Part shown: in pieces, positions 1-17,863 of the stretch
How positions within the stretch are numbered: the first letter of the stretch is position 1
How the letters are laid out: each line of letters opens with the position of its first letter
NCBI GenBank assembly: GCA_024694675.1
Contig: JAILJO010000005.1
Coordinates: forward strand, 1 to 51,692
Length of the DNA: 51,692 nt
Direction: 5' to 3'
From: Bacteroidales bacterium
Lineage (GTDB): Bacteria; Bacteroidota; Bacteroidia; Bacteroidales; UBA932
Notes under the pieces: model-generated
Database searches by the model: none
Told to the model about the DNA's origin: nothing
The model's input: the letters and a program-made list of their open reading frames with translations, nothing else
Made by a program: the position numbers and the translations under genes

Positions 1-156
1 AAGATGAAACTCAAGATGTCAGTTTACAACACGCTCCAAGTATTGGGAATCTCGCTCACAGATACAACGCCTCTTGAAGACCTCTTCAACAAATCTAACC
101 TCAATATTGACAAAGAACTTGACGGGTTCTATGAACCCACGTTGTTTGATTTTTAA
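1..156 (+). CDS. IS4-family-like transposase, C-terminal fragment (runs off window)
   Basis: An open frame from the first base to the TAA at 154-156 encodes 52 residues ending in a short acidic and hydrophobic tail (GFYEPTLFDF). The stretch QVLGISLTDTTPLEDLF resembles the C-terminus of IS4-type transposases common in Bacteroidota, with the 'lqiLgiSLtDkTpl.dLf' pattern I associate with DUF4372-containing members. The catalytic DDE residues would lie upstream, outside the window, so the enzyme cannot be judged intact. The family assignment rests on this tail alone and is tentative. Confidence 0.5.
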   Translation, partial: KMKLKMSVYNTLQVLGISLTDTTPLEDLFNKSNLNIDKELDGFYEPTLFDF

Positions 157-191
157 CTTTTAACTACGTCCACATCTTTTAGTGGACAGCA
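1..191 (+). mobile_element. Right end of an insertion sequence
   Basis: The transposase tail is followed by about 35 non-coding bases containing a small inverted repeat (GTCCAC at 168-173 and GTGGAC at 182-187). The next coding frame begins at 192, and its frame is closed by a TAG at 180-182 that lies inside this segment. This fits an IS end with its terminal repeat near 165-191, abutting the STAND gene. The exact boundary and any target duplication cannot be set because the other end is outside the window. Confidence 0.45.
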
Positions 192-4160: not shown

Positions 4161-4174
4161 TATTGGTATTTGAG

Positions 4175-6025
4175 ATGGAAACATTGAATGATATTTGTTC
4201 TTTGGTCAGGAAAGAAGATGTGACATTGTTTGTCGGATCCGGGTGTTCAATACCGGTCGCTCCGCCAGCGTCCGCTTTGTCAAAGAAGTTTTATGAGGAA
4301 TTGAACGATTCGATGAGGGAAGGGGTCGATGAGAATAATCTCCAAGAAACTTCATCCAGACTGATGCTTCAAGAAGGGGACTCTTTAAAACGTGATGAAA
4401 TAATAAAGATGAGTTTTTCGGGACTTACTCCCCAGGCTTTTCATAATAATATGGCGCTCATCCCTCATATTCATACTATCATAACAACGAATTATGATAC
4501 GCTGATTGAGGATGCTTTTTGTTGCGGTGGCATACAGGTTTTCAGGAAGGATTCTGAATGTTGTTGTTTCCAAGAAAGACAGACGCATCTTTACAAAATA
4601 CATGGTGATGTCAATGAGTTGGGGAGTATTGTTTTGTCTACCGAGGATTATCGTAGAACAATAAAATCGCCGTCGCAGCCAATCCTTTGGAACCATGTTC
4701 TTTCCGAATTTACAAAACATCATGTTGTATTTGTTGGCTATAGTCTATCTGATGGTAATATCCTTAATTTGATAGAGTATGTTAAGGACATGTTTGGCAG
4801 TGAAGCCAAGGGAATGTATATGGTGGCACCTACCATATCTGAAGTTCAGAAGAAAAAGCTTTCTTCTCTTGGGATAAAACCAGTTATATCGGATGCGGAA
4901 AAGTTTTCTGCATCCGTACTTCAAAGTTTGAAAGATCACTATGCCGAGGACTTACATTGCTTGAACTGTTCGGAAGAGACCGCAGCTAAGTTCGCTCTCT
5001 TAAATAATCTGAGCATATCATTGAAAAGAAAGGTATCTGAAGTTAATATCAATGGATATTCGGCTCTTAAAGGCTCTCCCAATGTTCAGTTACACATGAC
5101 AACGAAGCCAATCGAACTCTTTACCAAAGGCTTTTCTGTTTCGGATTTTACTGATGTTGAGTTCGGTTCCGGACCTATGGTAAAGATTCCAAGTGAGGAT
5201 TTACAACACCTTGAGACACGTGTAAACGGTTTAAGGTTTGACTGGGATGAAATGAAACAGGATTTGTATATCGGCCCGGTTGAGAAATCAGTGCAAATGA
5301 GATTGAGTGTCCCAAGCCGTGGCATTCTGGAAGAGTGGACGATGTCAAGTTATGGGGCCAGGGATGGTGTATTGATGAAATGGGAATGTCCTGTATTATC
5401 TTTAAAAGTTGTTATCCGTATAAATGAAAATGGGACGGGGATAACAGGAGATTTCAATATGACAGTAAAGGACCGGTATGAAAATAACGATTTGGCTATC
5501 CGTATCTTTACTGCGATTTGCGCTTATTTGGAGTGTGCCGATGCGGAACTGTCTTTGAATAAAGGAAAACTGCAGAAATATACTCCTACTCATGATAAGA
5601 TTCGAATTGTAAAACTATGGCTGGAGTATGCTTCGATACTGAAATCTATTGAACTTGCATATGGGGAGAAATTCAAGTATTATGAACCATATGACAAAGA
5701 CCGTATGGAAGCTGCTTCTATTGTTCTTGCTTATTTGAGAAAAGAGGTTAGGCTGGTTAATTCGAAACGTATCCTAAGTTTTGACTGTACATATTCTCCA
5801 GATTACGATTATCCCGTTGGGTCTACGTATGCTGTTGTGGGCAAGCGCACTTTAGAAAAAGGCATTGAAGTCGGGGGCATTTGCTTTCCGATCTTCCATG
5901 AAACTATGATGTTTAACGGGCGTATTCTGGAGAATACCAGGCTTGATGAGAAGACAATGCATTTCCGGATGGAGAATAAGGATGGGGTGGAAAGGTATGT
6001 ATATAGTGATGTGGTTGATGAATAA
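4175..6025 (+). CDS. SIR2-domain protein, probable NAD-depleting effector of the STAND pair
   Basis: The N-terminal 270 residues form a SIR2-type Rossmann domain: LFVGSGCSIP near residue 20 (NAD-binding glycine loop), TTNYDTLIEDAF near 103 (the TxN-D motif), YKIHGDVN with the expected catalytic histidine near 142, and VVFVGYSLSD near 185. Bacterial SIR2 proteins in defence operons typically hydrolyse NAD+ to stop growth of infected cells. The remaining 350 residues match nothing I recognise. The ORF track begins at a TTG at 4163; the ATG at 4175 is the more likely start, 14 bases after the STAND stop. The tight coupling suggests co-translation and a two-component system. NADase activity is inferred from the family. 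Confidence 0.75.
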   Translation: METLNDICSLVRKEDVTLFVGSGCSIPVAPPASALSKKFYEELNDSMREGVDENNLQETSSRLMLQEGDSLKRDEIIKMSFSGLTPQAFHNNMALIPHIHTIITTNYDTLIEDAFCCGGIQVFRKDSECCCFQERQTHLYKIHGDVNELGSIVLSTEDYRRTIKSPSQPILWNHVLSEFTKHHVVFVGYSLSDGNILNLIEYVKDMFGSEAKGMYMVAPTISEVQKKKLSSLGIKPVISDAEKFSASVLQSLKDHYAEDLHCLNCSEETAAKFALLNNLSISLKRKVSEVNINGYSALKGSPNVQLHMTTKPIELFTKGFSVSDFTDVEFGSGPMVKIPSEDLQHLETRVNGLRFDWDEMKQDLYIGPVEKSVQMRLSVPSRGILEEWTMSSYGARDGVLMKWECPVLSLKVVIRINENGTGITGDFNMTVKDRYENNDLAIRIFTAICAYLECADAELSLNKGKLQKYTPTHDKIRIVKLWLEYASILKSIELAYGEKFKYYEPYDKDRMEAASIVLAYLRKEVRLVNSKRILSFDCTYSPDYDYPVGSTYAVVGKRTLEKGIEVGGICFPIFHETMMFNGRILENTRLDEKTMHFRMENKDGVERYVYSDVVDE

Positions 6026-6147
6026 TAGGGTTATATAGATACTGGCAGTTTTTTTAGTTACTTGGATGGAGGGTGGAGAAAAAGGATAAAAAGTGAGATA
6101 ATAGACATATTATTTCATTATTTGATTAATGTTTAATTTTTTTTTCA

Positions 6148-6155
6148 TATATTTG
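6148..6155 (+). promoter_or_regulatory. Bacteroidota -7 element for the xre-dnd operon
   Basis: TATATTTG matches the Bacteroidota -7 consensus TAnnTTTG and lies 18 bases before the xre start codon. A TTTG at 6121-6124 could be the -33 box, but its spacing of 23 bases is longer than the usual 19, so only the -7 call is made. Confidence 0.45.
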
Positions 6156-6172
6156 AATTAAGAAAAAAAATT

Positions 6173-6397
6173 ATGGTAAAAGATATCAATCGCATTAAAG
6201 TAGTACTTGTAGAAAAGAAGCGCACAAATAAATGGTTAGCAGAACAGTTGGGCTGTGCGCCTACTACCGTATCAAAGTGGTGCACAAATGCTTGCCAACC
6301 TCCTATGGAAACATATCTGAGAATTGCAAAGTTACTTGATGTGGAAATCGACAAGTTGCTAAACAATGAATATGCCAACGAATTGGTAAATGAATAG
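6173..6397 (+). CDS. Small XRE-family helix-turn-helix regulator of the Dnd operon
   Basis: This 74-residue protein is almost wholly an HTH_3 domain: WLAEQLGCAPTTVSKWCTNACQPPMETYLRIAKLLDVEIDKLL covers the two recognition helices and the C-terminal helices. It is a DNA-binding regulator with no ligand or enzyme domain. Its last 8 bases overlap the start of dndC, so it is first in the operon and probably controls it, perhaps with autoregulation at the AT-rich upstream region. The operator is not identified. Small XRE proteins are common controllers of restriction-modification modules, where delayed nuclease expression protects the host; that role is inferred. Confidence 0.8.
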   Translation: MVKDINRIKVVLVEKKRTNKWLAEQLGCAPTTVSKWCTNACQPPMETYLRIAKLLDVEIDKLLNNEYANELVNE

Positions 6398-7727
6398 ACG
6401 TATAGAGTATATTGTTGATGAGATTTTGGACCAGTATATGTATGCTGATTCAACTGAACGTCCATGGATTATCGGTTTTAGCGGTGGGAAAGATTCTACT
6501 GTACTATTAACTTTAGTATGGCTTGCTCTTCGGAAGATAAAGGAGGGTGTTGTCACTCCCTTTCAACTTAGAAGACCCGTCTACGTTGTTTGCAATGATA
6601 CGATGGTTGAGAATCCCATTATTTCATCTTACGTTGATGAGGTACTTGAACAAATAGAAATAAGAGCTCGTGAGGAGGATATGCCTATATTTGTGCGTAA
6701 AACAGTACCGAAATTAGAGGATTCCTTTTGGGTAAACGTTATCGGCAAGGGCTATCCTGTTCCAAACAATGCATTCCGGTGGTGTACAGAAAAGATGAAG
6801 ATTAAACCTACCGCCAGGTATATTACTGAGCAAGTTGATGAATGTGGTGAGGCAATTATATTGATTGGTACAAGAAAAGCAGAAAGTGCGACAAGGGCGC
6901 GTTCAATCAAAAAACATGAGATTCATGGCCAGCGATTAACTCATCATACTCTACTACATAATACATATGTTTACGCCCCAATAAAAGATCTTTATTTGGA
7001 GGAAGTTTGGTATATTATTAACGCTATCCCTTGTCCTTGGGGATTTGATAATAAGGTTCTGTTTAACATTTATATGGATGCTAGCGCTGATGACTATGAA
7101 TGTCCAACAGTTGTTACCGATAAGAGTCATGGCTCATGTGGTCAAAGTCGCTTTGGTTGTTGGGTATGCACGGTAGTAAAAGATGATAAATCAATGCGCT
7201 CACTCATCAATAATGGTCGAGAGTGGATGCAGCCGTTATACGACTTCCGTATAGAATTAGATTCAGAACGTAATATTATTGAGAATAGAATGCCTTACCG
7301 TCGTGATGGCCGACGTGCTGTTAACGATATGGGACCATATACATTTTCGTATCGTGCAAAGATTCTTCGTCGACTTCTTGAAGTTCAACATATATTACAA
7401 CTTAAAGATCCCAAGATAAAACTCATTTCAGACCAGGAATTGATTGCTATTCAGGTAAACTGGTATCGCGATTTCAATTTTGGTTACAAAGTGTCAGATA
7501 TTTATAATTCAATCTATAACGAGTCTTTCAGAATGGAAGAAAACGAAAAGAATAAGTTAGAAGCGGACTTAATGCGCGAGATCTGTCAGAACAATCCCGA
7601 GGAAGGAGAGTTGATAGAGCAGTTATTGCTTCTTCAAAAAAGTAAGTCTCTTATGCAGCGACGCCGTGGATTAAAGAACGAAATTGAATTACGTTTGAAA
7701 GAGTTTTTAGACAATAAGAAAAAATGA
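6390..7727 (+). CDS. dndC: DNA phosphorothioation protein DndC
   Basis: DndC is the PAPS-reductase-like ATP pyrophosphatase that activates DNA for replacement of a non-bridging phosphate oxygen by sulphur. The PP-loop SGGKDST is at residues 31-37. FRWCTEKMKIKP is the family's conserved central motif, and CPTVVTDKSHGSCGQSRFGCWVC at about 237-261 supplies the cysteines of the Fe-S cluster. At 445 residues it is of usual length. It overlaps xre by 8 bases and dndD by an ATGA. No dndA cysteine desulphurase is present in the window, so sulphur would have to come from a chromosomal IscS/SufS-type enzyme, as is known for other Dnd clusters. Confidence 0.93.
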   Translation: MNRRIEYIVDEILDQYMYADSTERPWIIGFSGGKDSTVLLTLVWLALRKIKEGVVTPFQLRRPVYVVCNDTMVENPIISSYVDEVLEQIEIRAREEDMPIFVRKTVPKLEDSFWVNVIGKGYPVPNNAFRWCTEKMKIKPTARYITEQVDECGEAIILIGTRKAESATRARSIKKHEIHGQRLTHHTLLHNTYVYAPIKDLYLEEVWYIINAIPCPWGFDNKVLFNIYMDASADDYECPTVVTDKSHGSCGQSRFGCWVCTVVKDDKSMRSLINNGREWMQPLYDFRIELDSERNIIENRMPYRRDGRRAVNDMGPYTFSYRAKILRRLLEVQHILQLKDPKIKLISDQELIAIQVNWYRDFNFGYKVSDIYNSIYNESFRMEENEKNKLEADLMREICQNNPEEGELIEQLLLLQKSKSLMQRRRGLKNEIELRLKEFLDNKKK

Positions 7728-9811
7728 TAATAAAGTCGATAGAACTTAACAATTTCCGCATTTACCGGGGAAAGAACAAGATTGATTTAACTCCGAATGG
7801 AGAACATAATATAATCATTGTTAGTGGTAACAATGGTTATGGAAAAACAACGTTTCTCATGTCTCTTGTGTGGTGTTTATATGGGAAAAACATGGACAAG
7901 GTCGATGAACTATATAAAAAAGAGATAGATGAAAAAGGTTCATATAGTAAGTATATTGGGAATAGTTTGAATTTAACCGCGGCTGACAATGGGGAAACAC
8001 GTTTTTCGGTATCCGTTACATTCATCAATGTTGATATTCCTAATACAACCTGTACTGAAGTTACAATTGTTCGCTCCTACGATAGAGCCACAAGTGCTTC
8101 AGATGAGCTTGAAATACTCATAGATGGTAAGGCAAGTGATTTATTTGGAGATAAAGATGAGGAAGAGTTGTTTATTCGTGACTACATTTTGCCGATAGAG
8201 ATTGCAAAGTTTTTCTTTTTTGATGCAGAGAAAATAGTGTCATTTGCACAGGTTAACACGCCCAAACAACGTGCAGAATTGAGTCAAGCATATTCCCAAG
8301 TTTTAGGCATTCAGAAATATGCAGAATTGAAAAGTGAGTTGGAAAAATTACAAGATGACTATCGCAGGGAAGCAGCGCAGCCTCAAGATAAAAAAGAGTT
8401 TAACGAGCTTTTGGCATTGATAGCTAATGCTGAAGATCATATTTCTGATTGTGAAAGACGCATTTCTGAGCACCAAGAAAAGATTTCACTTTTAAAGTAC
8501 GAGTGCGGTGAACTACAAGAAAAGCTCATTCGCGAAGGTGACTTGATGAGTGTTGAGCGTCTTGAGGAGCTTAAGGGGAAAAAAGAAAGGTGTCAATCTG
8601 ATGTCAATGAGGCTCAAGAGGGTCTAAAAGAACTCTATAACTATATACCATTCGCGCTAGCTGGGAGTATCCTCTCAGATATGACCGTGCAAATTAAGGA
8701 AGAAAAGGTTTTCAATCAGAATAAGATTCAATTAGAAGGAATTGAAGAAAAAACCGATGATATTCTTGATGAGCTTGATAAAGCTCGGGATTCTTTTAAT
8801 GGACATATAGATATTAGGATAAGGAATTTTTATGAAAAAGAGATTAAAAGACTAATACTTAAGCATTTTTATAACGAACTTGATTTCGACAAGTATGATT
8901 CATTTAAAACCTTACATGATTTCTCCGATTTACAGTATGATGATTTTCTAGGTCTTTTAGAGAATATTAAATCGAGTAAGACCACATTTGAATCTATTTT
9001 CAACAAGTATTCAAAAGCAAAAGCGGAATTATTCTCAATTGAAAAAACTATTAGAGAGGCGGAAAAGAACGCCGAGAGCGAATACATTCAGTCGCTGCGC
9101 TTAAGAAAACAAAATAAAGAGGCAGAGATTACAAATCTCCAGGAAGAGAACGCACGTTTAAATGTATCTATAGAGCAAAAGAAAGAAGAGATTAAAGCCG
9201 CCAAACAAAAAAAAGCAATACTATCTGAAAGAATTGCTGTCTCGGCAAAAAACAAGGACATGGATGATGAGGCACGAATGCTTATCCTCACAATTCAAAA
9301 GTTTCTTTTACGTTTTAAGGATGAAAAGAAGAAGGCTCTTGAGAATAGACTAAAAGATAAACTAACTAGTTTCTTGCATAAGAAAGATTTGGTTAATAAT
9401 GTTGTAGTAGATATTCAAGGGAATGGTGAAGATGTGGATATTAATTTGTTTGATGCTGGTGGGAAGAAGATAGACAAGGGTATTCTATCAATGGGAGAAC
9501 GCCAGATGTTTGCTTCTGCGTTATTGGGAGCTTTGGTTGAGGAAACCGGTCTTGATTTTCCTGTATTCATTGATAGCCCTATGCAGAAATTTGACATTAA
9601 TCACAGTCAGAACATTCTGGCAAAGTTTTACCCCAATGTATCAAAACAGGTAGTATTATTCCCCCTATTGATGAAAGAGTTGACAGAGGAAGAATATGGA
9701 TTAATTGAGAGATATGTGAACAAGGCATTTCTTATTGAGAACCATAAAACTGGTTCGCAGTTCAAGGAAATTAAACCGCAAGAATTGTTTGACATTTATA
9801 AACAACAATAG
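7724..9811 (+). CDS. dndD: DNA phosphorothioation protein DndD (SMC/Rad50-like ATPase)
   Basis: DndD is an SMC-like ATPase thought to nick or remodel DNA during sulphur insertion. Here the N-terminal Walker A GNNGYGKT is at residues 35-42, with the family-typical MSLVWCLYGK following. The middle (about 190-540) is charged and coiled-coil-rich. Near the C-terminus come the ABC signature LSMGERQ and the Walker B PVFIDSPMQKFD. The 695-residue length suits the family. Its start overlaps the dndC stop (ATGA), and its stop is one base before the dndE-fusion ATG. All ATPase motifs look intact, so the protein should be active. Confidence 0.93.
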   Translation: MIIKSIELNNFRIYRGKNKIDLTPNGEHNIIIVSGNNGYGKTTFLMSLVWCLYGKNMDKVDELYKKEIDEKGSYSKYIGNSLNLTAADNGETRFSVSVTFINVDIPNTTCTEVTIVRSYDRATSASDELEILIDGKASDLFGDKDEEELFIRDYILPIEIAKFFFFDAEKIVSFAQVNTPKQRAELSQAYSQVLGIQKYAELKSELEKLQDDYRREAAQPQDKKEFNELLALIANAEDHISDCERRISEHQEKISLLKYECGELQEKLIREGDLMSVERLEELKGKKERCQSDVNEAQEGLKELYNYIPFALAGSILSDMTVQIKEEKVFNQNKIQLEGIEEKTDDILDELDKARDSFNGHIDIRIRNFYEKEIKRLILKHFYNELDFDKYDSFKTLHDFSDLQYDDFLGLLENIKSSKTTFESIFNKYSKAKAELFSIEKTIREAEKNAESEYIQSLRLRKQNKEAEITNLQEENARLNVSIEQKKEEIKAAKQKKAILSERIAVSAKNKDMDDEARMLILTIQKFLLRFKDEKKKALENRLKDKLTSFLHKKDLVNNVVVDIQGNGEDVDINLFDAGGKKIDKGILSMGERQMFASALLGALVEETGLDFPVFIDSPMQKFDINHSQNILAKFYPNVSKQVVLFPLLMKELTEEEYGLIERYVNKAFLIENHKTGSQFKEIKPQELFDIYKQQ

Positions 9812-9812
9812 C

Positions 9813-11396
9813 ATGCAGATAAACATAAAAACATCCGCAGCGAACCAAACTGTTGTGTCTAGGCTCACACAACGTCTTCCAGGTGGAGTAAAGGAGAATA
9901 TCATTGCTCGCATAGCATTATGTTTTTCTTTGGCATCAGGCAAACGTTTTATGCAAAACGAGTTCAGTATATATGATTCTCAAGGCAAAGAGTATAAGGA
10001 TCATATATTGTTTGATTCTGCCAACCGTGATTATTATATCGCTCTTGTTTGTCAATCTTACGGTATTAACAAGAATAATGAATTAATTCCTAAATATGTT
10101 AAATTGCATATTGATCACGGATTGGAGCAGATTAATTATCTGTTTGAGAAAAGGCCTCAGTATACTTTTTTTGATTTCTTAGTTGAGTATTTAGAAAAGG
10201 GTATCGATTCCATTGAAGATGCCCCTATATCTCTTGATGCTGTTAGGAATAATAATCAGCATATTAGCAAGACCACTTTTACTGGTCCAATAGACATAAG
10301 AATTGGATACAATCCTGAAACTCATGCGCCGATTAATTATTGCTTTAATAATACAAAGACGTACAATAACCAGCATATTGCTGTTGCAGGGAAATCTGGA
10401 TCAGGCAAGTCCCAATTTGCTTTAGAGTTTCTTCGCCAGTTAGTTACAAGAACGCAGGGACAGGTCAATTTCTTGTTTTTAGACTTTAAGGGTATTTCTT
10501 CAGATGATAGAAAGAAAATGGAAGGGTTTTTTAAAGAAACCCATACTACATGCATTAATGCCCCGGATGTCCCATTCCCACTCAACCCACTATCGTTTAT
10601 TGACAATATTAATGACAGGAATAAGCTAGTTGGTATAAACAAGTTTGTTGACATAATAGCTAAGTATTCAAATATTGGGAAAAGGCAACAGCAAACGCTG
10701 AAAGAAGCGGTGCAAGAAGCATTTATTCGAAAAAAAGGTGGAGACTATCCCTCGTTGGAAGAAGTATACGATTTGATTATTGACCGAGTTGGGGATAATC
10801 GTGATACATTAACTGAAATTATGGGCCGCTTAAGTGAATATGAATTATTTGCTTCAAAGATTAGTAATCCAAGCTTGTTCTTAAACAACAATTATTATTT
10901 ATCTTTGTCAGGTGAGTTGGACAGTACAGTACGATTTACATCTGTTTTCCTTATTATTAATTATATTTTTAATGTTTTTTCTAATATGGGAAGCACTGAA
11001 GTAAATGATAATTATAGAGAAATGCGCTATGTTCTAATGATAGATGAAGCTCATGATTTGTTCCGAGAAAAGAAATCACTAGAGATTCTAGAGGTTATTC
11101 TTAGAAAGATTCGTTCATATGGTGTGTCCGTTTTTCTATTGTCACAAGGCATTACCGAATACAATACGGCGAATTTTGATTTCTCACAAGAATGCGAGAC
11201 CTCTTTTCTTTTGCCCATAAACGATATTGCTAACACAAAGGCAATCAATAAGTTCTTGGGGTTGACAATCAAAGATGGTAATACGGCTATTCGAAACATA
11301 GAAAAACTTAAGAATGGACAAGCAATCTCGAATATGAAAGAGTATCCGAAGACGGAAGTGTTTGATGTTGTACAATATTGGAAAGAATCATTATGA
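9813..11396 (+). CDS. DndE domain fused to a HerA/FtsK-type ATPase
   Basis: The first 110 or so residues resemble DndE, normally a separate small DNA-binding protein that recognises nicked DNA: a helical RIALCFSLASG segment and a C-terminal KLHIDHGLEQI that matches the 'lr.HidrGi' ending of DndE. After a linker comes a HerA/FtsK-like motor with Walker A AGKSGSGKS near residues 191-199, Walker B VLMIDEAHDLF near 406-414, and a following arginine-rich RKIRSYGVSVFLLSQG sensor segment. The ORF track starts inside dndD; the ATG at 9813, one base after the dndD stop, is the sensible start and gives 527 residues. The fusion would tether a DNA translocase to the modification complex. The DndE assignment is by pattern; the ATPase is clear. 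Confidence 0.78.
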   Translation: MQINIKTSAANQTVVSRLTQRLPGGVKENIIARIALCFSLASGKRFMQNEFSIYDSQGKEYKDHILFDSANRDYYIALVCQSYGINKNNELIPKYVKLHIDHGLEQINYLFEKRPQYTFFDFLVEYLEKGIDSIEDAPISLDAVRNNNQHISKTTFTGPIDIRIGYNPETHAPINYCFNNTKTYNNQHIAVAGKSGSGKSQFALEFLRQLVTRTQGQVNFLFLDFKGISSDDRKKMEGFFKETHTTCINAPDVPFPLNPLSFIDNINDRNKLVGINKFVDIIAKYSNIGKRQQQTLKEAVQEAFIRKKGGDYPSLEEVYDLIIDRVGDNRDTLTEIMGRLSEYELFASKISNPSLFLNNNYYLSLSGELDSTVRFTSVFLIINYIFNVFSNMGSTEVNDNYREMRYVLMIDEAHDLFREKKSLEILEVILRKIRSYGVSVFLLSQGITEYNTANFDFSQECETSFLLPINDIANTKAINKFLGLTIKDGNTAIRNIEKLKNGQAISNMKEYPKTEVFDVVQYWKESL

Positions 11397-12484
11397 AACA
11401 AGAGATTAAATATGTAGATATTAATAATCTTCAATTAGATTTATATAATCCTCGTCTTCCAAAATCCAAGCAAGGGACGGATGAAGGTGTAGTTATTGAG
11501 TACTTACTCCTTGAAGCAGCCACTTTGGAATTGATGGAATCAATTGGAGAAAACGACTTTTTTGTCGGAGAAATGCTTCTGGTTATTCCCAGTGAAAGGT
11601 CTGGTAGTTTTATAGTGGTTGAGGGTAATAGGCGCCTTACGGCTGTTCTATTACTTAATAAACCCGAATTGGCTAGAGTTAAAAAGGCTTCAATAAAAGA
11701 GATATACGATTCGGCGAAGTATAAGCCTTCTAGTTTACCCTGCCTTATCTTTAATAGTCGAGAAGAAATCCAAAAATACATTGGTTTTGTTCATATTACA
11801 GGGAAAAAATCGTGGCGAATGTTGGAAAAAGCACGCTACTTGTATGACCTGAGTCATTCCGACAAATTTCAAGGACTATCTTTTATTGATGTGTGCAAAG
11901 AAATTGCTAGAGTAATAGGGAGTCGATCTCCCTATGTAAGAAAGATGCTCACAAGTTTCCAGTTATATACCATTATTGAGGACGAAAAGTTCTATCAAAT
12001 AGATGGTTTGTCAGACTCCTCGTTCTTCCTTAATTATTTTTCCGATGGCTTGCAAAAAGAAAACATACGAATGTACATGGGGGTCGAGCTTGATTCTGAT
12101 GATCCATTAAAGAACTTAAACAAAGAGCATCTTAAAGACCTCGTAACATGGTGGTTCAAAAAAAGTGAGGGGGTTTCTCGTGTTATTGGAGATAGCGATG
12201 GAATGAAGAAACTCAATGAGGTACTGGGAAATGAAATAGCATTATTTGCCTTTAAAAGAGGGGCTAGTATTGATATAGCATACGAACTGACTAATGACAT
12301 TGATTTACAGTTTGAGCGTAAGGTAAAAGAATCATTGATGGCGATTGAGCAGGCAGATGGATTGTCTAATAAAGTCAAGACCTTTTATATCGACTTATAT
12401 GATGATTTGAAGAGTTTACGTCAGATAGCAGTAAAGATTAACGATTTCAAGACAAGGAGGGAGCAGGATGGCGACGAGTTTTGA
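11393..12484 (+). CDS. ParB-like (sulfiredoxin-fold) protein of the Dnd operon
   Basis: The 363-residue product begins with a ParB/Srx-like domain: YVDINNLQLDLYNPRLP is the typical entry strand and VVEGNRRLTAVLLL (about residues 75-88) is the ExNRR phosphate- or nucleotide-binding motif. The middle has a ParB-like helical region (SRSPYVRKMLTSFQLYTIIED), and the C-terminus is helical and charged. ParB-fold proteins in defence act as NTP-dependent DNA-binding or nicking factors, and DGQQR-type relatives read phosphorothioation in Ssp systems. Its ATG overlaps the fusion's stop (ATGA). It may sense or regulate modification, or license the neighbouring nuclease; which one is not visible. Confidence 0.65.
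   Translation: MKQEIKYVDINNLQLDLYNPRLPKSKQGTDEGVVIEYLLLEAATLELMESIGENDFFVGEMLLVIPSERSGSFIVVEGNRRLTAVLLLNKPELARVKKASIKEIYDSAKYKPSSLPCLIFNSREEIQKYIGFVHITGKKSWRMLEKARYLYDLSHSDKFQGLSFIDVCKEIARVIGSRSPYVRKMLTSFQLYTIIEDEKFYQIDGLSDSSFFLNYFSDGLQKENIRMYMGVELDSDDPLKNLNKEHLKDLVTWWFKKSEGVSRVIGDSDGMKKLNEVLGNEIALFAFKRGASIDIAYELTNDIDLQFERKVKESLMAIEQADGLSNKVKTFYIDLYDDLKSLRQIAVKINDFKTRREQDGDEF
12454..12470 (+). promoter_or_regulatory. Strong Shine-Dalgarno that fixes the nuclease start
   Basis: ACAAGGAGGGAGCAGGATG places AGGAGG about 6 bases before the ATG at 12468, inside the upstream coding frame. Most starts in this window have no such motif, so it points to independent or boosted initiation of the nuclease. 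Confidence 0.55.
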
Positions 12485-13424
12485 TGAAAAATATTCCCAA
12501 AGCATTGTTAATTTGGCAAATGTCGGCAGACCCGATTATTCTAGAGATGAGACTAACCTATATGCGGACTTTGTGGAACTAATGGTGGTTTTCTCAAAAG
12601 GAGACGGGATTGCATATGGGGATATCCAGGACCGTTTTTTTGGTGAACCAGATGAGAAAAATTCTACTGAAATCAATGATGATAATGAATCTTTGATTGG
12701 CGGTATTATTAACGTCATTAAGGAGCGGCTTTTTTTATTTGGGGGTCTTTATCCGTTTATGGTCTTGCCAGAACAGACCATTATATTAAAAAGTGACTTG
12801 ACGTCGTCTCAAAAGTTATATCTTTTTTTGCTTTTTTCTTCTTCACTTGACATTTTTAGTTCTTTCAACACAGAGTTAACGACTGATTTTGAATTCGTTT
12901 CATATGAGGCAATAAAGACTTTCCTGCCAAATGCGATTGTTAAACATTTTGGAAAACTCTCTGAATACACGGGTTCAGCAATAGAAAAAATTAAGAATCT
13001 GGCTAATGACATAGGGCTACCCTTTGATGACTACGAGATCGGATGCATTGGAGAAAGGAATAATCAGGAACGTGGATTGGATATCGTTTCATGGATACCT
13101 TTTGAAGACAAGTGCCAGAATAAAGTAGTTTTCTTATGTCAATGTGCTTGTGGCAAACAATATGAATCAAAGCAACACGATATACGACGATATCAGAATT
13201 ATTACCGCTTCTACAAAACTAAGCCTCAGCTAACATTATTTGTCCCGTATTCTTTGATTAACCCAAAGGAGAATAAGTTTTATCATTCTGATTATGTAGA
13301 AGGTGATTATCTGATTTTTGAGAGGTTGCGCATTATTAGATTAGCTATCCAAAAGGAAGATTTGCTTTCATTTTTAAAATCTACTTGCCTTCTTGAGAAA
13401 TGTATTCATGATTATTGTGCTTAG
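12468..13424 (+). CDS. Putative PD-(D/E)XK-type nuclease closing the Dnd operon
   Basis: The N-terminal 190 residues are helical and unassigned. Residues 196-300 follow a pattern I recognise from uncharacterised restriction-like proteins: NNQERGLDIVSW, a PF-D turn, then KVVFLCQCACGKQYESK, and later LFVPYSLI plus an ERLRIIRL helix. The aspartate in GLDIV and the Q/K pair in the next strand would be the catalytic set of a PD-(D/E)XK variant. The start overlaps the ParB-like gene by 17 bases and is preceded by AGGAGG, a strong ribosome site. It is last in the operon, where a restriction effector would be expected. Function is inferred; no close homologue is identified by eye. Confidence 0.55.
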   Translation: MATSFDEKYSQSIVNLANVGRPDYSRDETNLYADFVELMVVFSKGDGIAYGDIQDRFFGEPDEKNSTEINDDNESLIGGIINVIKERLFLFGGLYPFMVLPEQTIILKSDLTSSQKLYLFLLFSSSLDIFSSFNTELTTDFEFVSYEAIKTFLPNAIVKHFGKLSEYTGSAIEKIKNLANDIGLPFDDYEIGCIGERNNQERGLDIVSWIPFEDKCQNKVVFLCQCACGKQYESKQHDIRRYQNYYRFYKTKPQLTLFVPYSLINPKENKFYHSDYVEGDYLIFERLRIIRLAIQKEDLLSFLKSTCLLEKCIHDYCA

Positions 13425-13890
13425 AAAGGCGTAGCTAGAAGAGTAGAAGTGCCTATGACTTGTGTGCGAATATGGGTTAAACAGACGCGTGAGATATTCA
13501 TCGATTTCCGATGAGGTATAACAAATCTGAATGTTTTCTTACCTTTGCACTACAAAGAATTATCGCTTGTCAAGGGAATAGTCGCTTCTTTCGAATAAGT
13601 CAGAGAATCACTTATTTAATAATCGAGTTTTTGACAGGGATGACCATCCGCGGTCAGGTATTGACAAATAAACTTACTAAGAATTTATTTGGTTGGCCAT
13701 AAACAATTAAAAATCAATCATCTACTCCTTCTGTTTAAAAACGAGTGGTTTCAAGCTAGAGCAGGGGTTTGTAGCAGTTATTGAGGTTAAAAATCAATAA
13801 TATTTTCAAAGAAATGCAATATAATTGTGGAGAATGCATTATTTTTGTAAGTGATGAATTTTGAATGCCACCGAAAGTGTTATATGGCCT
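13425..13890. other. Gene-free stretch between the Dnd operon and Septu
   Basis: These 466 bases hold no convincing coding frame; the 63-codon ORF at 13511 has no family features. Two promoter-like -7 boxes are seen: TACCTTTG at 13540-13547 and TATTTTTG at 13840-13847. A short hairpin TGACC-ATCCGC-GGTCA lies around 13640. A small RNA or a decayed gene started from the first box is possible but unproven. No CRISPR-like repeats are visible. Confidence 0.5.
13840..13847 (+). promoter_or_regulatory. -7 element for the Septu operon
   Basis: TATTTTTG fits TAnnTTTG and lies 43 bases before the ptuA ATG, giving a 5' leader of about 35-40 bases. No good -33 box is found at the usual distance. Confidence 0.4.
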
Positions 13891-15180
13891 ATGAAACTGA
13901 GAAAGATAAAACTTACAGATTTTCGTTGTTTTAAAGAGTATGAAATAGGACTTAAAAGCGGAGTGAATCTTCTTATAGGTGAGAACGGCTCTGGTAAGAC
14001 TTCAGTAATACGGGGTGTTACACTGGCATTGAACGCTTTTTTCAAAGGCTTCAGTGATGAGAACACTTCTTGCGCAGGTATAGCATCAGAGGATTTCTGC
14101 CATTCTGTAGCAAACGAGTCGAAGAGTTTGACTCGACCTGCTGAAGTGTTGTTTTCCACCATAAGTGGTGACGAGAACGTTTCCATTTTCAGGAAATCGA
14201 AGAAGACATCAACAATATATCAGAATGCCAGAGAGTTTAACTGGAAAAACAAGGATTTGTATAGTAAGGTGGCAAAAGAGGATGGTGATCATCGTCAAAC
14301 ACCTCTGCCGCTGTTTGCATTCTTTGCTACTGATGATATACATCTGAAATATCAGAATGTGGAAGCCAAGTCTTTCAAGGATTACTATCTTGCACCATCT
14401 TTTGGATACTACCTCTGCCTAAGAGGAGGCTTCCTGGCTAAATATTGGGTTAACAGGATGCTGGTTCTGGAAGAAGGCGGCAAGGGTGAAGAAGAATTGG
14501 AGATAGTGAGGAATGCGATCAGGACCGCATTGGGTAATGACGGGTGCGGAATCATCTGTGATGTGACTATCAGGCCCAAACAGGGATATGTTTATTTCAT
14601 CTTTACTGACGGCAGGGAGGTACGATTTGAAGATTTGTCAGATGGTTATATGCGTCTGGTGAACATGGTAATAGATATGGCATTCAGGTGCAGTATCCTA
14701 AATAGGCCTCTTTTCGGTCTACAGGCTTGTTCAAGGACTGAGGGGGTGGCTTGTGTTGACGAGATAGATGACCATCTGCATCCGTCATTGCAGGCAAAGG
14801 TGATAAAGGGGTTGAAACTGGCATTTCCCAGAGTGCAGTTCGTGATCTCCACACACGCACCGATGGTGATGTCAAGCGTGATGACAAACGAGGAGAATGA
14901 GGTGCTACACTTGGAATATCGTGACGGCACATATATGGCAATGCCCATTAACACATACGGTCTGGATGCATCGACAATACTGGAGATGTATATGGGAAAG
15001 AATGCACGAGTGGCAGAAGTGGAGGAACGGCTGAAGGAACTGTTTGACTTGATAGACAGCGATCATTATCCCGAGGCAAAGGCAAAGTTAAAGGAACTGA
15101 CGAACGATTTCGGTGATACTCTTCCTGAAATCATACAGGCTCGTACGATGCTGGACTTTAGAATGGAGAGCGATGATTAA
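13891..15180 (+). CDS. ptuA: Septu PtuA-type AAA/ABC-like ATPase
   Basis: The 429-residue ATPase has the compact AAA15/21 or OLD-like fold: N-terminal IKLTDFRCFKEYEI, Walker A IGENGSGKTS (about 28-37), signature FEDLSDGYMR (about 246), Walker B ACVDEIDDHLHPSLQ (about 287) and the H-loop FVISTHAPMVMSS (about 318). In Septu, PtuA binds ATP and holds the HNH nuclease PtuB until phage infection; the adjacent overlapping ptuB makes this assignment likely. The track begins at TTG 13861; ATG 13891 (MKLRKIKLTDFR) is the family-typical start. No reverse transcriptase is nearby, so this is Septu rather than a retron such as Ec78. Confidence 0.82.
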   Translation: MKLRKIKLTDFRCFKEYEIGLKSGVNLLIGENGSGKTSVIRGVTLALNAFFKGFSDENTSCAGIASEDFCHSVANESKSLTRPAEVLFSTISGDENVSIFRKSKKTSTIYQNAREFNWKNKDLYSKVAKEDGDHRQTPLPLFAFFATDDIHLKYQNVEAKSFKDYYLAPSFGYYLCLRGGFLAKYWVNRMLVLEEGGKGEEELEIVRNAIRTALGNDGCGIICDVTIRPKQGYVYFIFTDGREVRFEDLSDGYMRLVNMVIDMAFRCSILNRPLFGLQACSRTEGVACVDEIDDHLHPSLQAKVIKGLKLAFPRVQFVISTHAPMVMSSVMTNEENEVLHLEYRDGTYMAMPINTYGLDASTILEMYMGKNARVAEVEERLKELFDLIDSDHYPEAKAKLKELTNDFGDTLPEIIQARTMLDFRMESDD

Positions 15181-15823
15181 GATTGACAAGGGTCGTGAGC
15201 CTGCGGAGTGGACGGAGCAGAGGAATACTCCCGGAATTACATACGAGACTGCACGCAAGGATGCCTTGAGGCAGGCACTGCTGGAAGAACAAGGAGGACT
15301 GTGCGGTTACTGTATGCGTCGCGTGTCTTTTGTGCCCGGTGAGGTGACAAATACCCGCATAGAACATCTGAAGCCGCGTACGCTGAGTCTGGCACAAGGG
15401 AAGCCGGAAGAGACGCTGGCCTATAGCAACATGATTCTGTGTTGCAATGGAGATATTGACGGAAGCAAGAATTTCCATTGTGACGTGAGCAAGGATGAGA
15501 CGGAGATTCACTTTAAGCCTTTTAACGCTGCTGCAATAGCTACGATTTCCTATTCATCGGGTGACGGTAGTATCAAATCGTCTAATGCTGTTTATGACAA
15601 GGATCTTAATGAAGTGCTGAACCTGAACCATCCACGGCTGAAAGCAAACAGACGTGCTGTATTAATAGGTTTGGCAACAGAGATGGGAAAGAATACGTGG
15701 AGCAAGTCGGAAATCCAACATAAGTTGACGTATTATAGTAGCAGGACATCTGGCGGCCAATTGCATGTATACTGTGGTGTGGTAATTTGGTATCTTTCGA
15801 AGAAACTAAGGCAGTTTGTCTGA
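15173..15823 (+). CDS. ptuB: Septu PtuB-type HNH endonuclease (TIGR02646-like)
   Basis: This 216-residue protein fits the TIGR02646 family of HNH nucleases paired with PtuA in Septu and retron systems. It shows KGREPAEWTE near the start, GLCGYCMRRV with paired cysteines (about 42-51), IEHLKPRT with the HNH histidine (about 62), AYSNMILCCN with the asparagine and further cysteines (about 83-92), and FHCDVSK. The zinc-binding and ββα-metal residues appear intact. The ATG at 15173 overlaps ptuA by 8 bases; the longer upstream start in the track lies in ptuA. It is the presumed nucleic-acid-cleaving effector. Confidence 0.82.
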   Translation: MIKIDKGREPAEWTEQRNTPGITYETARKDALRQALLEEQGGLCGYCMRRVSFVPGEVTNTRIEHLKPRTLSLAQGKPEETLAYSNMILCCNGDIDGSKNFHCDVSKDETEIHFKPFNAAAIATISYSSGDGSIKSSNAVYDKDLNEVLNLNHPRLKANRRAVLIGLATEMGKNTWSKSEIQHKLTYYSSRTSGGQLHVYCGVVIWYLSKKLRQFV

Positions 15824-16026
15824 AACGGGTGAGATTAACGAATACCAAAACGAAGGTCAATGAGAGCCGTAAGGTGCATAAAATCAAATTCGGCGATAAA
15901 GACGTGTCGCTATTTACTTTCTTCCTCCAGCTTGTGAACTACTTAAAGTTCATTGGTACTGTCCCGGCGATTGATATTAATGCGTATCTGAAGGCAATTC
16001 ATGCAAAGATTGACGAGGAAATATAA
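15787..16026 (+). CDS. Small ORF overlapping the ptuB end; fragment or unknown small protein
   Basis: The 79-codon frame opens at a TTG inside ptuB. From about 15825 on it looks coding, with balanced composition and a helical, hydrophobic segment VSLFTFFLQLVNYLKFIGTVPAIDINAYLKAIHAKI. I do not recognise the family. No ATG and no ribosome site are present, so it may be the surviving 3' end of a gene whose beginning was lost in a rearrangement just after ptuB, or an additional small Septu-linked protein. A frameshifted extension of ptuB is less likely, because ptuB already ends at a family-typical tail. Confidence 0.33.
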   Translation: MVSFEETKAVCLKRVRLTNTKTKVNESRKVHKIKFGDKDVSLFTFFLQLVNYLKFIGTVPAIDINAYLKAIHAKIDEEI

Positions 16027-16074
16027 AAAGTATAGCAAGGGGTATAAATAGAAGGATTAAATACATGTAGATTA

Positions 16075-16100
16075 ACCGATAGTAATCATTAAATATCGGT
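16075..16100 (+). terminator. Weak hairpin after the Septu operon
   Basis: ACCGATA (16075-16081) and TATCGGT (16094-16100) form a 7-base-pair stem with a 12-base loop followed by ATTTGTGTTT. The stem is short and the T-run imperfect, so termination is only plausible. Confidence 0.3.
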
Positions 16101-16200
16101 ATTTGTGTTTATCTATGAAAGTAGAGTTGACTTCAATACGCGTAACGGGCTGCTCGTTTATGTTACAAATGAAAAAAGGATGCAACTTATGAGTCACCTC

Positions 16201-17385
16201 CTATAGCGCTGGTATCAGGTCTACGGCCTTGCGTTTGCTCTCGTCCACGATCTTGGCGTAAACCTGTGTGGTGGTGACCCGCTTGTGGCCGAGGAGTTTG
16301 GAGACGGTGTACAGGTCGGCTCCGTAAGCTAGGTCCAGGGTTGCGAAGGTATGGCGGGCGCAGTGGAAGGTAATGGGTTTGTCAATCCCGGCCCGTTCCA
16401 CCATCTTCCTGAGGTATTTCTGGATCATGCACCGTTTTGGGAGTCTGAAAACGGTATCGGCATCTTTGGATTTGCCTCTTTCCGGCATTACCTTCAGGGC
16501 ATTTTCTGAGAGGGGCAGATATAACTTTTCCTTAGTCTTGATCTGGGTCAGGTCTATCTGCCTGGTCCCATCAGACATGGTTTTTATCTTCCCCCAGGTG
16601 AGGGCTTCGATGTCGCCGAGGCGGAGTCCGCAGAAACAGCTGAAAAGGAATGCTGGCAGGACAGCACGCTCATATTCGTTCTGCGGGACCACCGCGGCAA
16701 GAGCGCGGACTTCCGGCATGGTGAGGTAACAGCGGTTGGACGCCGGTTTGGCAGGCTTGTCCTTGGGCTCCATTTTGGTTACGGGATTGTATTTGATGAT
16801 ATCGTCCCGGACCGCCTTGTTGAGCGCCGCGTTAAAGATACCGAAATAATCGTACTGCGTGTGCGGAGAAAGTGGCTTTGGCGTGAAGTTCTTCTTCTTG
16901 ATGGGCTGGCGGTCTTCCCGCTTGGGCGGCAATGTCTTGGCTCGCTTCAGATAGGACACAAAGCCCATACAGAATTCTTTGTCAATGCTTCCAATCTCCA
17001 CCTGGTCACCGGCGTATTTAATGAAATGGTTGATTCCATTGTCGTATGTCTGGTAGGTGCTGGTCCCCCTTTCTTTCGCCTTCTGAGAAAGAGAGCGCAT
17101 ATAATCCACAAAGTTCATCTGGCTGCGTAGACGGGCGTTGCTGAAACCGAACTCGCCGTTCTGGAGTTCCACAATCTTTTGCGCCTTGTATGCGTTTGCC
17201 GTCCTCAGCGTCTCTGCATTTTTGTCCTTCTCTACACCCGAACGCTCCGGGACGAGGTACAGTTTCAGGAACTCGTACTGGCGCACCCCGCCGGAGTAGT
17301 AATCCAGGTACAGGGACTGGCTTCCGTCCTTCAGTTTCTTTGCCCGCAGGCGTATGGGTTCCTTGTTTTGTTTCAGCTTTCTCAT
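16201..17385 (-). CDS. Tyrosine recombinase (integrase) of the island
   Basis: The 394-residue protein is a Bacteroidota-type site-specific tyrosine recombinase: an arm-binding N-terminus (KEPIRLRAKKLKDGSQSLYLDYY), a SAM-like core-binding domain (about 100-200), and a catalytic domain with arginine in CGLRLGDIEAL, HCARHTFATLDLAYG (H-x-x-R), LLGHKRVTTTQVY (H and nucleophile Y). All catalytic residues are present. The ATG at 17385 fits a promoter 19 bases upstream; the longer track start at 17436 would lie upstream of that promoter. It sits next to the 3' end of tRNA-Pro, the usual target for such enzymes, and is GC-richer than the defence genes it would mobilise. It probably excises and integrates the island. 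Confidence 0.9.
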   Translation of the reverse strand: MRKLKQNKEPIRLRAKKLKDGSQSLYLDYYSGGVRQYEFLKLYLVPERSGVEKDKNAETLRTANAYKAQKIVELQNGEFGFSNARLRSQMNFVDYMRSLSQKAKERGTSTYQTYDNGINHFIKYAGDQVEIGSIDKEFCMGFVSYLKRAKTLPPKREDRQPIKKKNFTPKPLSPHTQYDYFGIFNAALNKAVRDDIIKYNPVTKMEPKDKPAKPASNRCYLTMPEVRALAAVVPQNEYERAVLPAFLFSCFCGLRLGDIEALTWGKIKTMSDGTRQIDLTQIKTKEKLYLPLSENALKVMPERGKSKDADTVFRLPKRCMIQKYLRKMVERAGIDKPITFHCARHTFATLDLAYGADLYTVSKLLGHKRVTTTQVYAKIVDESKRKAVDLIPAL

Positions 17386-17403
17386 AGCATTTCCCTTTGC
17401 CTG

Positions 17404-17437
17404 CAAAGATAGCGAAAATTTGTTACCGAGTAACAAA
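17404..17437 (-). promoter_or_regulatory. Integrase promoter with palindromic operator
   Basis: On the minus strand TATCTTTG (17404-17411) matches the -7 consensus, and TTTG (17434-17437) is a possible -33 box 22 bases away. A perfect palindrome TTTGTTAC-CGA-GTAACAAA (17419-17437) covers the spacer, and a third half-site GTAACAAA lies at 17441-17448. This layout suggests repression of the integrase by a dimeric regulator, whose gene is not identified. Confidence 0.55.
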
Positions 17438-17448
17438 TGGGTAACAAA

Positions 17449-17740: not shown

Positions 17741-17808
17741 GACTTGAGTCATTCCGACCATAAAAAAAAGCAGCTCGTGCTGCTTTTTGGTCGGGATGAC
17801 TCGACTCG
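17740..17808. repeat. Extended imperfect inverted repeat at the tRNA-Pro 3' end
   Basis: CGACTTGAGTCATTCCGACC (17740-17759) matches the reverse complement of 17789-17808, the last bases of tRNA-Pro, at 17 of 20 positions. The arms flank the tRNA terminator. This could be a degenerate inverted copy of the tRNA 3' end left by integration. Confidence 0.55.
17762..17788 (-). terminator. Rho-independent terminator of tRNA-Pro
   Basis: On the minus strand AAAAAGCAGC-ACGA-GCTGCTTTTTTTT forms a 10-base-pair stem with a T-run, immediately downstream of the tRNA-Pro 3' end. Confidence 0.8.
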
Positions 17809-17863
17809 AACGAGCGACCCCTACGTCCCGAACGTAGTGCGCTACCAACTGCGCTACATCCCG
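17791..17863 (-). tRNA. tRNA-Pro (CGG)
   Basis: The 73-base sequence starts CGGGATG and ends CATCCCG plus A discriminator. It has the D-arm GCGC-AGTTGGTA-GCGC, anticodon stem-loop CTACG-TTCGGGA-CGTAG (anticodon CGG) and T-arm GCTCG-TTCGAGT-CGAGT. CCA is not encoded. Its 3' end faces the integrase, marking the probable integration site of the island. Confidence 0.93.

What the first reader, a model, noticed from the sequence alone, without database searches (positions are those of the whole stretch)
11393..13424. ParB-like plus PD-(D/E)XK-type pair as a new phosphorothioation-linked effector
The ParB-like protein has VVEGNRR and the second has GLDIVSW with a Q/K strand, in the position where restriction genes would be expected. 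They overlap by 17 bases. A sensor/effector split guided by sulphur modification is plausible.
Basis: inference. Interest (0 to 1): 0.7.

Follow-up and report, generated by a model that had tools for sequence, protein, structure and literature searches.

The report
ParB–nuclease restriction pair with swappable marks
Two neighbouring genes encode a ParB-like DNA-binding protein and a DNA-cutting enzyme that elsewhere, above all in bacterial viruses, sit beside DNA-methylating enzymes but here ride with DNA-sulphur genes, which suggests that bacteria can swap the chemical mark that tells one and the same cutter to spare their own DNA.

Summary
Window 11393-13424 holds a ParB-like gene and a nuclease gene overlapping by 17 bases, the last two genes of an operon dndC-dndD-dndE::HerA-parB-nuclease. 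The nuclease model (AlphaFold2, pLDDT 89) matches PD-(D/E)XK restriction enzymes (MspJI, AspBHI, FokI) and carries invariant D205, Q225 and K235; the ParB-like model matches KorB/Noc/ParB, nucleotide-binding fold plus HTH. The full operon recurs in two other Bacteroidota genomes, and its 3' end in a third. But the pair is usually found without dnd genes. In 81 of 82 viral contigs both genes are adjacent (the other contig ends after parB); all 79 contigs with enough flank have a DNA methyltransferase close by (78 C5-cytosine type), as do 48 E. coli genomes and phage Wphi (orf98-orf96-mth). Other Bacteroidota pairs adjoin C5-cytosine or N6-adenine methyltransferases. The sulphur-linked pairs form one clade (support 1.0). 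Conversely, the same dndCDE::HerA core carries other cargo elsewhere. Best reading: a portable two-gene restriction module, normally guarded by methylation, coupled here to phosphorothioation. It is not a dedicated sulphur sensor. Mechanism is inferred; nothing is tested at the bench. Pfam, NCBIfam and PADLOC lack the nuclease.

The parts
6390..7727 (+). dndC, PAPS-reductase-like sulphur transferase (445 aa)
   Evidence: TIGR03183 424 bits, over its cut-off 290.4; PADLOC DndC 7e-142
7724..9811 (+). dndD, ABC ATPase (695 aa); no CxC zinc-hook motif, so DndD rather than the CxC/PbeC type although PADLOC's best model is named PbeC
   Evidence: TIGR03185 270.4 bits, over its cut-off 245.85; PADLOC PbeC 1.2e-212, DndD 9.7e-87; cysteine positions
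9813..11396 (+). dndE fused to a HerA/FtsK ATPase (527 aa); DndE at residues 5-108, Walker A GKSGSGKS at residue 193
   Evidence: Pfam DndE 3.3e-17 and AAA_10/FtsK; HerA region matches DndH C-terminus 8e-31; conserved in L010, L011
11393..12484 (+). ParB/KorB-fold protein (363 aa): ParB/Srx NTP-binding domain with EGNRR (residues 77-81), HTH around residues 164-197, helical C-terminus
   Evidence: AF2 model pLDDT 90.8, pTM 0.80; KorB 8qa9 Z 10.8, Noc 7nfu Z 9.8; phrog_3694 1e-78 over residues 1-360
12468..13424 (+). nuclease (318 aa): N-terminal winged-helix-like part (about 28-120) and C-terminal PD-(D/E)XK domain (about 131-300), candidate active site E142/E201, D205, Q225, K235
   Evidence: AF2 model pLDDT 89.1, pTM 0.91; MspJI Z 7.5, AspBHI and FokI Z 6.3, McrC and Shedu Z 5.6; conservation; phrog_3984 2.1e-28
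12468..12484 (+). 17-base overlap of the parB-like and nuclease genes

Best explanation
The pair is a portable two-gene restriction module. The ParB-like protein binds a DNA site through its HTH and, gated by a bound nucleotide, loads on or releases the DNA; it places or licenses the partner PD-(D/E)XK nuclease, which cuts unmarked DNA. A partner enzyme marks the host copy of the site so that it is spared: usually a C5-cytosine methyltransferase (P2-like prophages), sometimes an N6-adenine methyltransferase, and in one Bacteroidota clade, which includes this window, the phosphorothioation core DndC-DndD-DndE::HerA. Shown here: the two folds (as predictions), the conserved candidate active sites, the obligate pairing, the partner genes and the single sulphur-linked clade. 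Inferred: DNA cutting, site recognition by ParB, nucleotide gating, and protection by the mark.
For: ParB and nuclease occur together in 81 of 82 viral loci (the other contig ends after parB) and in all Bacteroidota loci with enough sequence; their distance matrices correlate at r = 0.89. A DNA methyltransferase lies close by, usually directly next to the nuclease, in 79 of 79 viral loci with enough flank: 78 C5-cytosine, 1 N6-adenine. The same triad is annotated in 48 of 5426 E. coli genomes, shown at the P2 portal site in the one read out, and in phage Wphi as orf98-orf96-mth. C5-cytosine methyltransferases adjoin the pair in L023, L024, L026 and L167 and D12 adenine methyltransferases in L025, L029, L030 and L165. 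dndC-dndD-dndE::HerA-parB-nuclease is complete in the window, L010 and L011; L007 keeps its 3' part. Sulphur-linked pairs form one clade, support 1.0. The nuclease fold matches modification-dependent and other restriction enzymes; ParB matches KorB/Noc/ParB over NTP fold plus HTH. The dndE::HerA core carries other cargo elsewhere, so it swaps partners too.
Against: No bench data. Pairs without any adjacent modification gene exist (L008, L009, L166); L008 and L009 lie inside the sulphur clade, their genomes show no dndC (draft genomes, one 78% complete), and both genes are under purifying selection (dN/dS about 0.14 and 0.22). An always-active cutter without its mark should be lethal. Known PT systems mark only 10-15% of sites (PMC11662687), so simple blocking of every site cannot be the whole story. 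The expected Q-x-K lysine is replaced by A or G in most members; K235 on the next helix must stand in, which is unproven. Structural Z-scores for the nuclease (7.5) are middling.
Confidence: 0.6

Rival explanations
1. Sulphur-sensing effector, as the first reader proposed and as in SspE: the ParB protein recognises phosphorothioate, hydrolyses nucleotide and switches the nuclease on, or off as in DndI.
For: SspE and DndI are ParB-superfamily NTPase plus nuclease proteins with shown PT sensing (PMC13251355, PMC11662687). The PT-linked pairs form their own clade, so PT sensing could have arisen there. Pairs lacking dndC remain intact, as a PT-activated effector would be harmless without PT.
Against: The same protein families pair with methyltransferases in nearly all other loci. 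The ParB is of KorB/Noc type with an HTH, not a DUF262 protein: the GmrSD_N match stays below its cut-off. No PT-binding residue could be tested.
Confidence: 0.2
2. ParB replaces DndB as regulator of the sulphur operon, and the nuclease helps DNA access or repair rather than restriction.
For: DndB-family genes occupy the downstream slot after dndE::HerA in L140, L141 and L149; DndB is a ParB-superfamily regulator (PMC10853773).
Against: The pair is self-contained and pairs with single methyltransferases where no dnd operon exists; a regulator of dnd genes cannot explain those loci.
Confidence: 0.1
3. Abortive-infection device: the nuclease attacks host DNA when the partner modification system is inhibited by a phage.
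For: Orphan pairs persist (L008, L009, L166). The window pair sits in a low-GC defence island beside Septu and STAND-SIR2 genes.
Against: Tight coupling to modification genes and a restriction-enzyme fold fit direct restriction better; no toxin-antitoxin layout is seen.
Confidence: 0.1

Closest known systems
DndI and SspE (DUF262-HNH effectors of Dnd/Ssp phosphorothioation systems)
   Same: ParB-superfamily nucleotide-binding domain working with a nuclease beside DNA sulphur modification genes; the E-G-N-R-R motif sits where DndI and SspE have D-G-Q-Q-R (motif comparison, not a structural superposition).
   Different: Two proteins instead of one; KorB/Noc-type ParB with an HTH instead of DUF262; PD-(D/E)XK instead of HNH; the family mostly partners methyltransferases.
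DndFGH
   Same: Restriction part of a dnd locus; DndH carries a HerA ATPase like the one fused to DndE here.
   Different: No DndF, DndG or DndH in the locus; the HerA domain here is fused to the modification protein DndE, a fusion already reported for a subset of Dnd systems (PMC10853773).
ParB-nuclease-Dcm triad of P2-like prophages, e.g. phage Wphi orf98-orf96-mth (phrog_3694 and phrog_3984)
   Same: Same ParB and nuclease families, same order, same tight spacing.
   Different: Mark made by a C5-cytosine methyltransferase instead of DndCDE; annotated only as ParB domain, hypothetical protein and methyltransferase.
PD-lambda-5 (E. coli defence system)
   Same: PADLOC's PD-Lambda-5_A models match the first 170 residues of the ParB protein (6e-26).
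   Different: Only the N-terminal part matches; the nuclease matches no PADLOC model.
GmrSD (type IV, ParB-like GmrS plus HNH GmrD)
   Same: ParB-superfamily NTPase plus nuclease, sometimes as two proteins.
   Different: No HNH domain here; the GmrSD_N match is below its cut-off; GmrSD cuts modified DNA and has no modification partner.

Membership tests
PD-(D/E)XK nuclease superfamily | alpha-beta core with helix, three strands, helix, strand | tested here: met
   AF2 model order H131-152, E157-160, E206-210, E220-226, H232-243, E254-258; best structural matches are mostly PD-(D/E)XK enzymes, MspJI Z 7.5, 152 residues aligned, rmsd 5.3
PD-(D/E)XK nuclease superfamily | D ... (E/Q)-x-K active site | tested here: inconclusive
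   D205 and Q225 invariant in 39 of 39; the K of Q-x-K is A or G there, K235 on the next helix is invariant; L025 and L027 do have QCK. Geometry not measured
ParB/KorB/Noc superfamily | ParB/Srx nucleotide-binding fold plus HTH domain | tested here: met
   KorB 8qa9 Z 10.8 over residues 4-286; Noc 7nfu Z 9.8 over 1-282
ParB/KorB/Noc superfamily | canonical E-N residues of box III needed for CTP hydrolysis in chromosomal ParB | tested here: inconclusive
   H-I-T-G with invariant H134 and G137 stands at the likely place; the profile alignment is gapped there
ParB partition system | adjacent parA | tested here: not met
   no ParA homologue among the neighbouring genes; the genome's own parAB is on another contig
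Dnd phosphorothioation (modification) system | DndC, DndD and DndE in one operon | tested here: met
   TIGR03183 and TIGR03185 over their cut-offs, Pfam DndE over its cut-off
DndFGH restriction | DndF, DndG and DndH genes | tested here: not met
   none among the genes of the locus scanned; the rest of the genome was not searched for them
DndI/SspE | DUF262 and DUF1524-HNH in one polypeptide | tested here: not met
   GmrSD_N 18.5 bits against cut-off 33.2; no HNH match; separate genes
DndI/SspE | phosphorothioate sensing by the ParB-superfamily domain | not testable with these tools
   needs biochemistry
PD-lambda-5 | full-length PD-Lambda-5_A protein | tested here: not met
   matches residues 1-170 to positions 1-180 of 466 only; the E. 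coli relative matches residues 9-282 of 373 at most
Restriction-modification system | nuclease gene linked to a DNA modification gene | tested here: met
   three orphan pairs are exceptions
Restriction-modification system | cuts DNA lacking the partner's mark | not testable with these tools
   needs biochemistry

The most novel reading that the evidence does not exclude
A restriction enzyme whose specificity or licensing subunit is a nucleotide-gated ParB-type DNA clamp, and whose self-mark is interchangeable: 5-methylcytosine, N6-methyladenine or backbone phosphorothioate protect against the same kind of cutter.
Probability: 0.3. Interest if true: 0.8.

Novelty: new variant of a known kind. 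Interest (0 to 1): 0.55.

Why it matters
Many phosphorothioation loci lack a known restriction partner. This gives one clade a concrete candidate and, through the methyltransferase-linked relatives in E. coli prophages and phage Wphi, a version that can be tested in ordinary laboratory strains. It also proposes a role for two phage protein families of unknown function (phrog_3694, phrog_3984) and suggests that DNA marks and DNA cutters recombine as separate modules, with sulphur used where a methyl group is used elsewhere.

Tried and rejected
Sequence searches of the nuclease in Pfam, PADLOC and NCBIfam gave nothing; profile search of PDB sequences gave only chance matches (colicin immunity protein, E 0.02). 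A single-sequence scan of genome contigs found one relative. Plasmid searches were nearly empty. The idea that PADLOC's PDC-M38A (715 positions) is a ParB-nuclease fusion was not supported: a locus matching only its C-terminal half showed no nuclease match to our profile. A hunt for attachment-site repeats of tRNA-Pro in the window found none as direct repeats. dndE::HerA was not found in viral contigs with single-sequence patterns. No held paper was found that describes the ParB-nuclease-methyltransferase triad as a restriction system; the library is partial, so prior description cannot be excluded. Genome handles from other phyla could not be used as search centres. Only loci of the allowed kinds were used for structure prediction.

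Full report
What is there. DndC and DndD pass the curated NCBIfam cut-offs and DndE passes Pfam's. PADLOC's best model for the ATPase is called PbeC, but the protein has no CxC hook motif, so it is treated as DndD. The fusion of DndE with HerA is not new: Rakesh et al. report HerA domains fused to DndE in a subset of Dnd systems (PMC10853773). The last two genes overlap by 17 bases, exactly as described, and the ParB start codon overlaps the dndE::HerA stop codon by 4.

What the two proteins are. The nuclease matched nothing in Pfam, PADLOC or NCBIfam. An AlphaFold2 model from 39 aligned window and the search for related loci sequences has pLDDT 89.1 and pTM 0.91. Its best structural matches are mostly restriction or related enzymes of PD-(D/E)XK fold: MspJI (Z 7.5, 152 residues, rmsd 5.3), AspBHI and FokI (6.3), EcoT38I (6.2), McrC and Shedu (5.6), Can2 and Card1 (5.2-5.3). 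These Z-scores are middling, but the list is consistent and the order of secondary-structure elements fits. The N-terminal part (about residues 28-120) matches winged-helix domains. D205, Q225 and K235 are invariant in 39 of 39 sequences and position 201 is always D or E. In most members the lysine of the usual Q-x-K motif is replaced by A or G, so K235 on the following helix is the likely substitute; two Bacteroidota members have Q-C-K. The ParB-like model (pLDDT 90.8) matches KorB (Z 10.8), Noc (9.8) and chromosomal ParB over the nucleotide-binding fold and the HTH, with SspE and DndI far lower (Z about 4, first 138 residues only). PHROGs holds both families as unknown function: phrog_3694 for the ParB (1e-78, full length) and phrog_3984 for the nuclease (2.1e-28).

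Where the pair occurs. In 393 genomes of the order, 5 hold the nuclease; in 395 of the phylum, 10. The five-gene operon is complete in L010 and L011, from other families, and L007 shows its last three genes at a contig edge. In the other Bacteroidota the pair sits next to a C5-cytosine methyltransferase (L023, L024, L026, L167) or a D12-class N6-adenine methyltransferase (L025, L029, L030, L165), or next to no modification gene (L008, L009, L166). A scan of viral contigs with the ParB alignment returned 158 relatives, of which 80 loci were kept, plus two loci from the nuclease alignment. In these 82 loci the ParB-like gene is followed at once by the nuclease in 81; the last contig ends after parB. 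A DNA methyltransferase was found in 79; the three without are cut off by the contig end. Many of these contigs are near-identical P2-like prophages, so the number of independent cases is smaller. In E. coli the triad parB - hypothetical protein - cytosine methyltransferase is present in 48 of 5426 complete genomes for one sequence variant and sits beside the P2 portal gene in the one read out; coliphage Wphi carries it as orf98-orf96-mth. No viral locus had a dndC, dndD or dndE::HerA match.

History. In trees of the ParB, the nuclease and both together, the sulphur-linked pairs form one clade with support 0.998-1.0; L008 and L009 lie inside it. L008 has a decayed dndE::HerA remnant downstream, and no dndC was found in either genome (both drafts, L009's 78% complete). 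Between L008 and L009 the pair shows dN/dS of about 0.14 (ParB) and 0.22 (nuclease), computed from dN and dS, so it has been kept under selection. The sulphur core swaps partners too: downstream of dndE::HerA other genomes carry a RhuM-family gene (L138), a GHKL ATPase with a Methyltransf_35 protein (L139), DndB-family genes (L140, L141, L149) or an unknown gene with an N6/N4 methyltransferase (L144, L148).

How it probably works. The common denominator is a DNA-binding ParB-type protein plus a nuclease, next to an enzyme that marks DNA. The simplest model is restriction-modification: ParB supplies site recognition and a nucleotide-gated switch, the nuclease cuts, the partner's mark protects. 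Here the mark would be phosphorothioate. This is inference from anatomy and context. Two points pull against the simplest form: known phosphorothioation marks only 10-15% of its sites (PMC11662687), and orphan pairs survive. Either points to a nuclease that needs a trigger, as SspE does (PMC13251355), or to a mark supplied from elsewhere in the genome.

Judgement. The claim of a new phosphorothioation-linked effector is right for this clade as a genetic linkage, but the family as a whole is not sulphur-specific; its usual partner is a methyltransferase. I call it a new variant of a known kind: a restriction-modification-like system with an unusual ParB/PD-(D/E)XK restriction module whose modification partner is interchangeable. 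No description of the triad as a restriction system was found in the held literature, which is only part of the literature.

Noticed in passing
window 13861-15823: Septu-type pair PtuA (AAA ATPase, PADLOC 9.4e-143) and PtuB (HNH, 2.7e-63) directly downstream of the operon; both stay below NCBIfam's retron-Ec78 cut-offs.
   Followed up: partly
window 192-6025: Two-gene block upstream: a 1322-aa STAND/NACHT-like ATPase and a 620-aa SIR2-domain protein, a likely further defence unit.
   Followed up: no
window 1-17440: Low-GC island: 34-40% GC up to about 14000 and 45-50% up to about 17400, against about 52% beyond, with a tyrosine integrase at 16201-17436 (-) and tRNA-Pro at 17788-17863 (-). The left end lies beyond the contig.
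   Followed up: partly
window about 17745-17815: Near the 3' end of tRNA-Pro the + strand carries GAGTCATTCCGACCA, an imperfect inverted copy of the tRNA end, around a hairpin.
   Followed up: no
L138, L139, L140, L141, L144, L148, L149: The dndE::HerA core carries different downstream genes in different Bacteroidota: RhuM, GHKL ATPase plus Methyltransf_35, DndB-family, unknown plus N6/N4 methyltransferase.
   Followed up: partly
L008:2430-2860: Decayed dndE::HerA remnant (start and end of the gene with stops) downstream, not upstream, of an intact ParB-nuclease pair.
   Followed up: partly
L168:7015-13835: ParB-nuclease pair facing three opposite-strand genes, one resembling a GHKL/MORC-type ATPase by eye; not annotated with profiles.
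   Followed up: no
L028:8040-10822: ParB-nuclease pair with a NotI-family restriction enzyme gene directly upstream (Pfam NotI 1.4e-27).
   Followed up: no
L025:9423-12039: Full-length PD-Lambda-5_A protein (3e-170) with an HNH_2 protein next to it, adjacent to a D12-ParB-nuclease triad.
   Followed up: no
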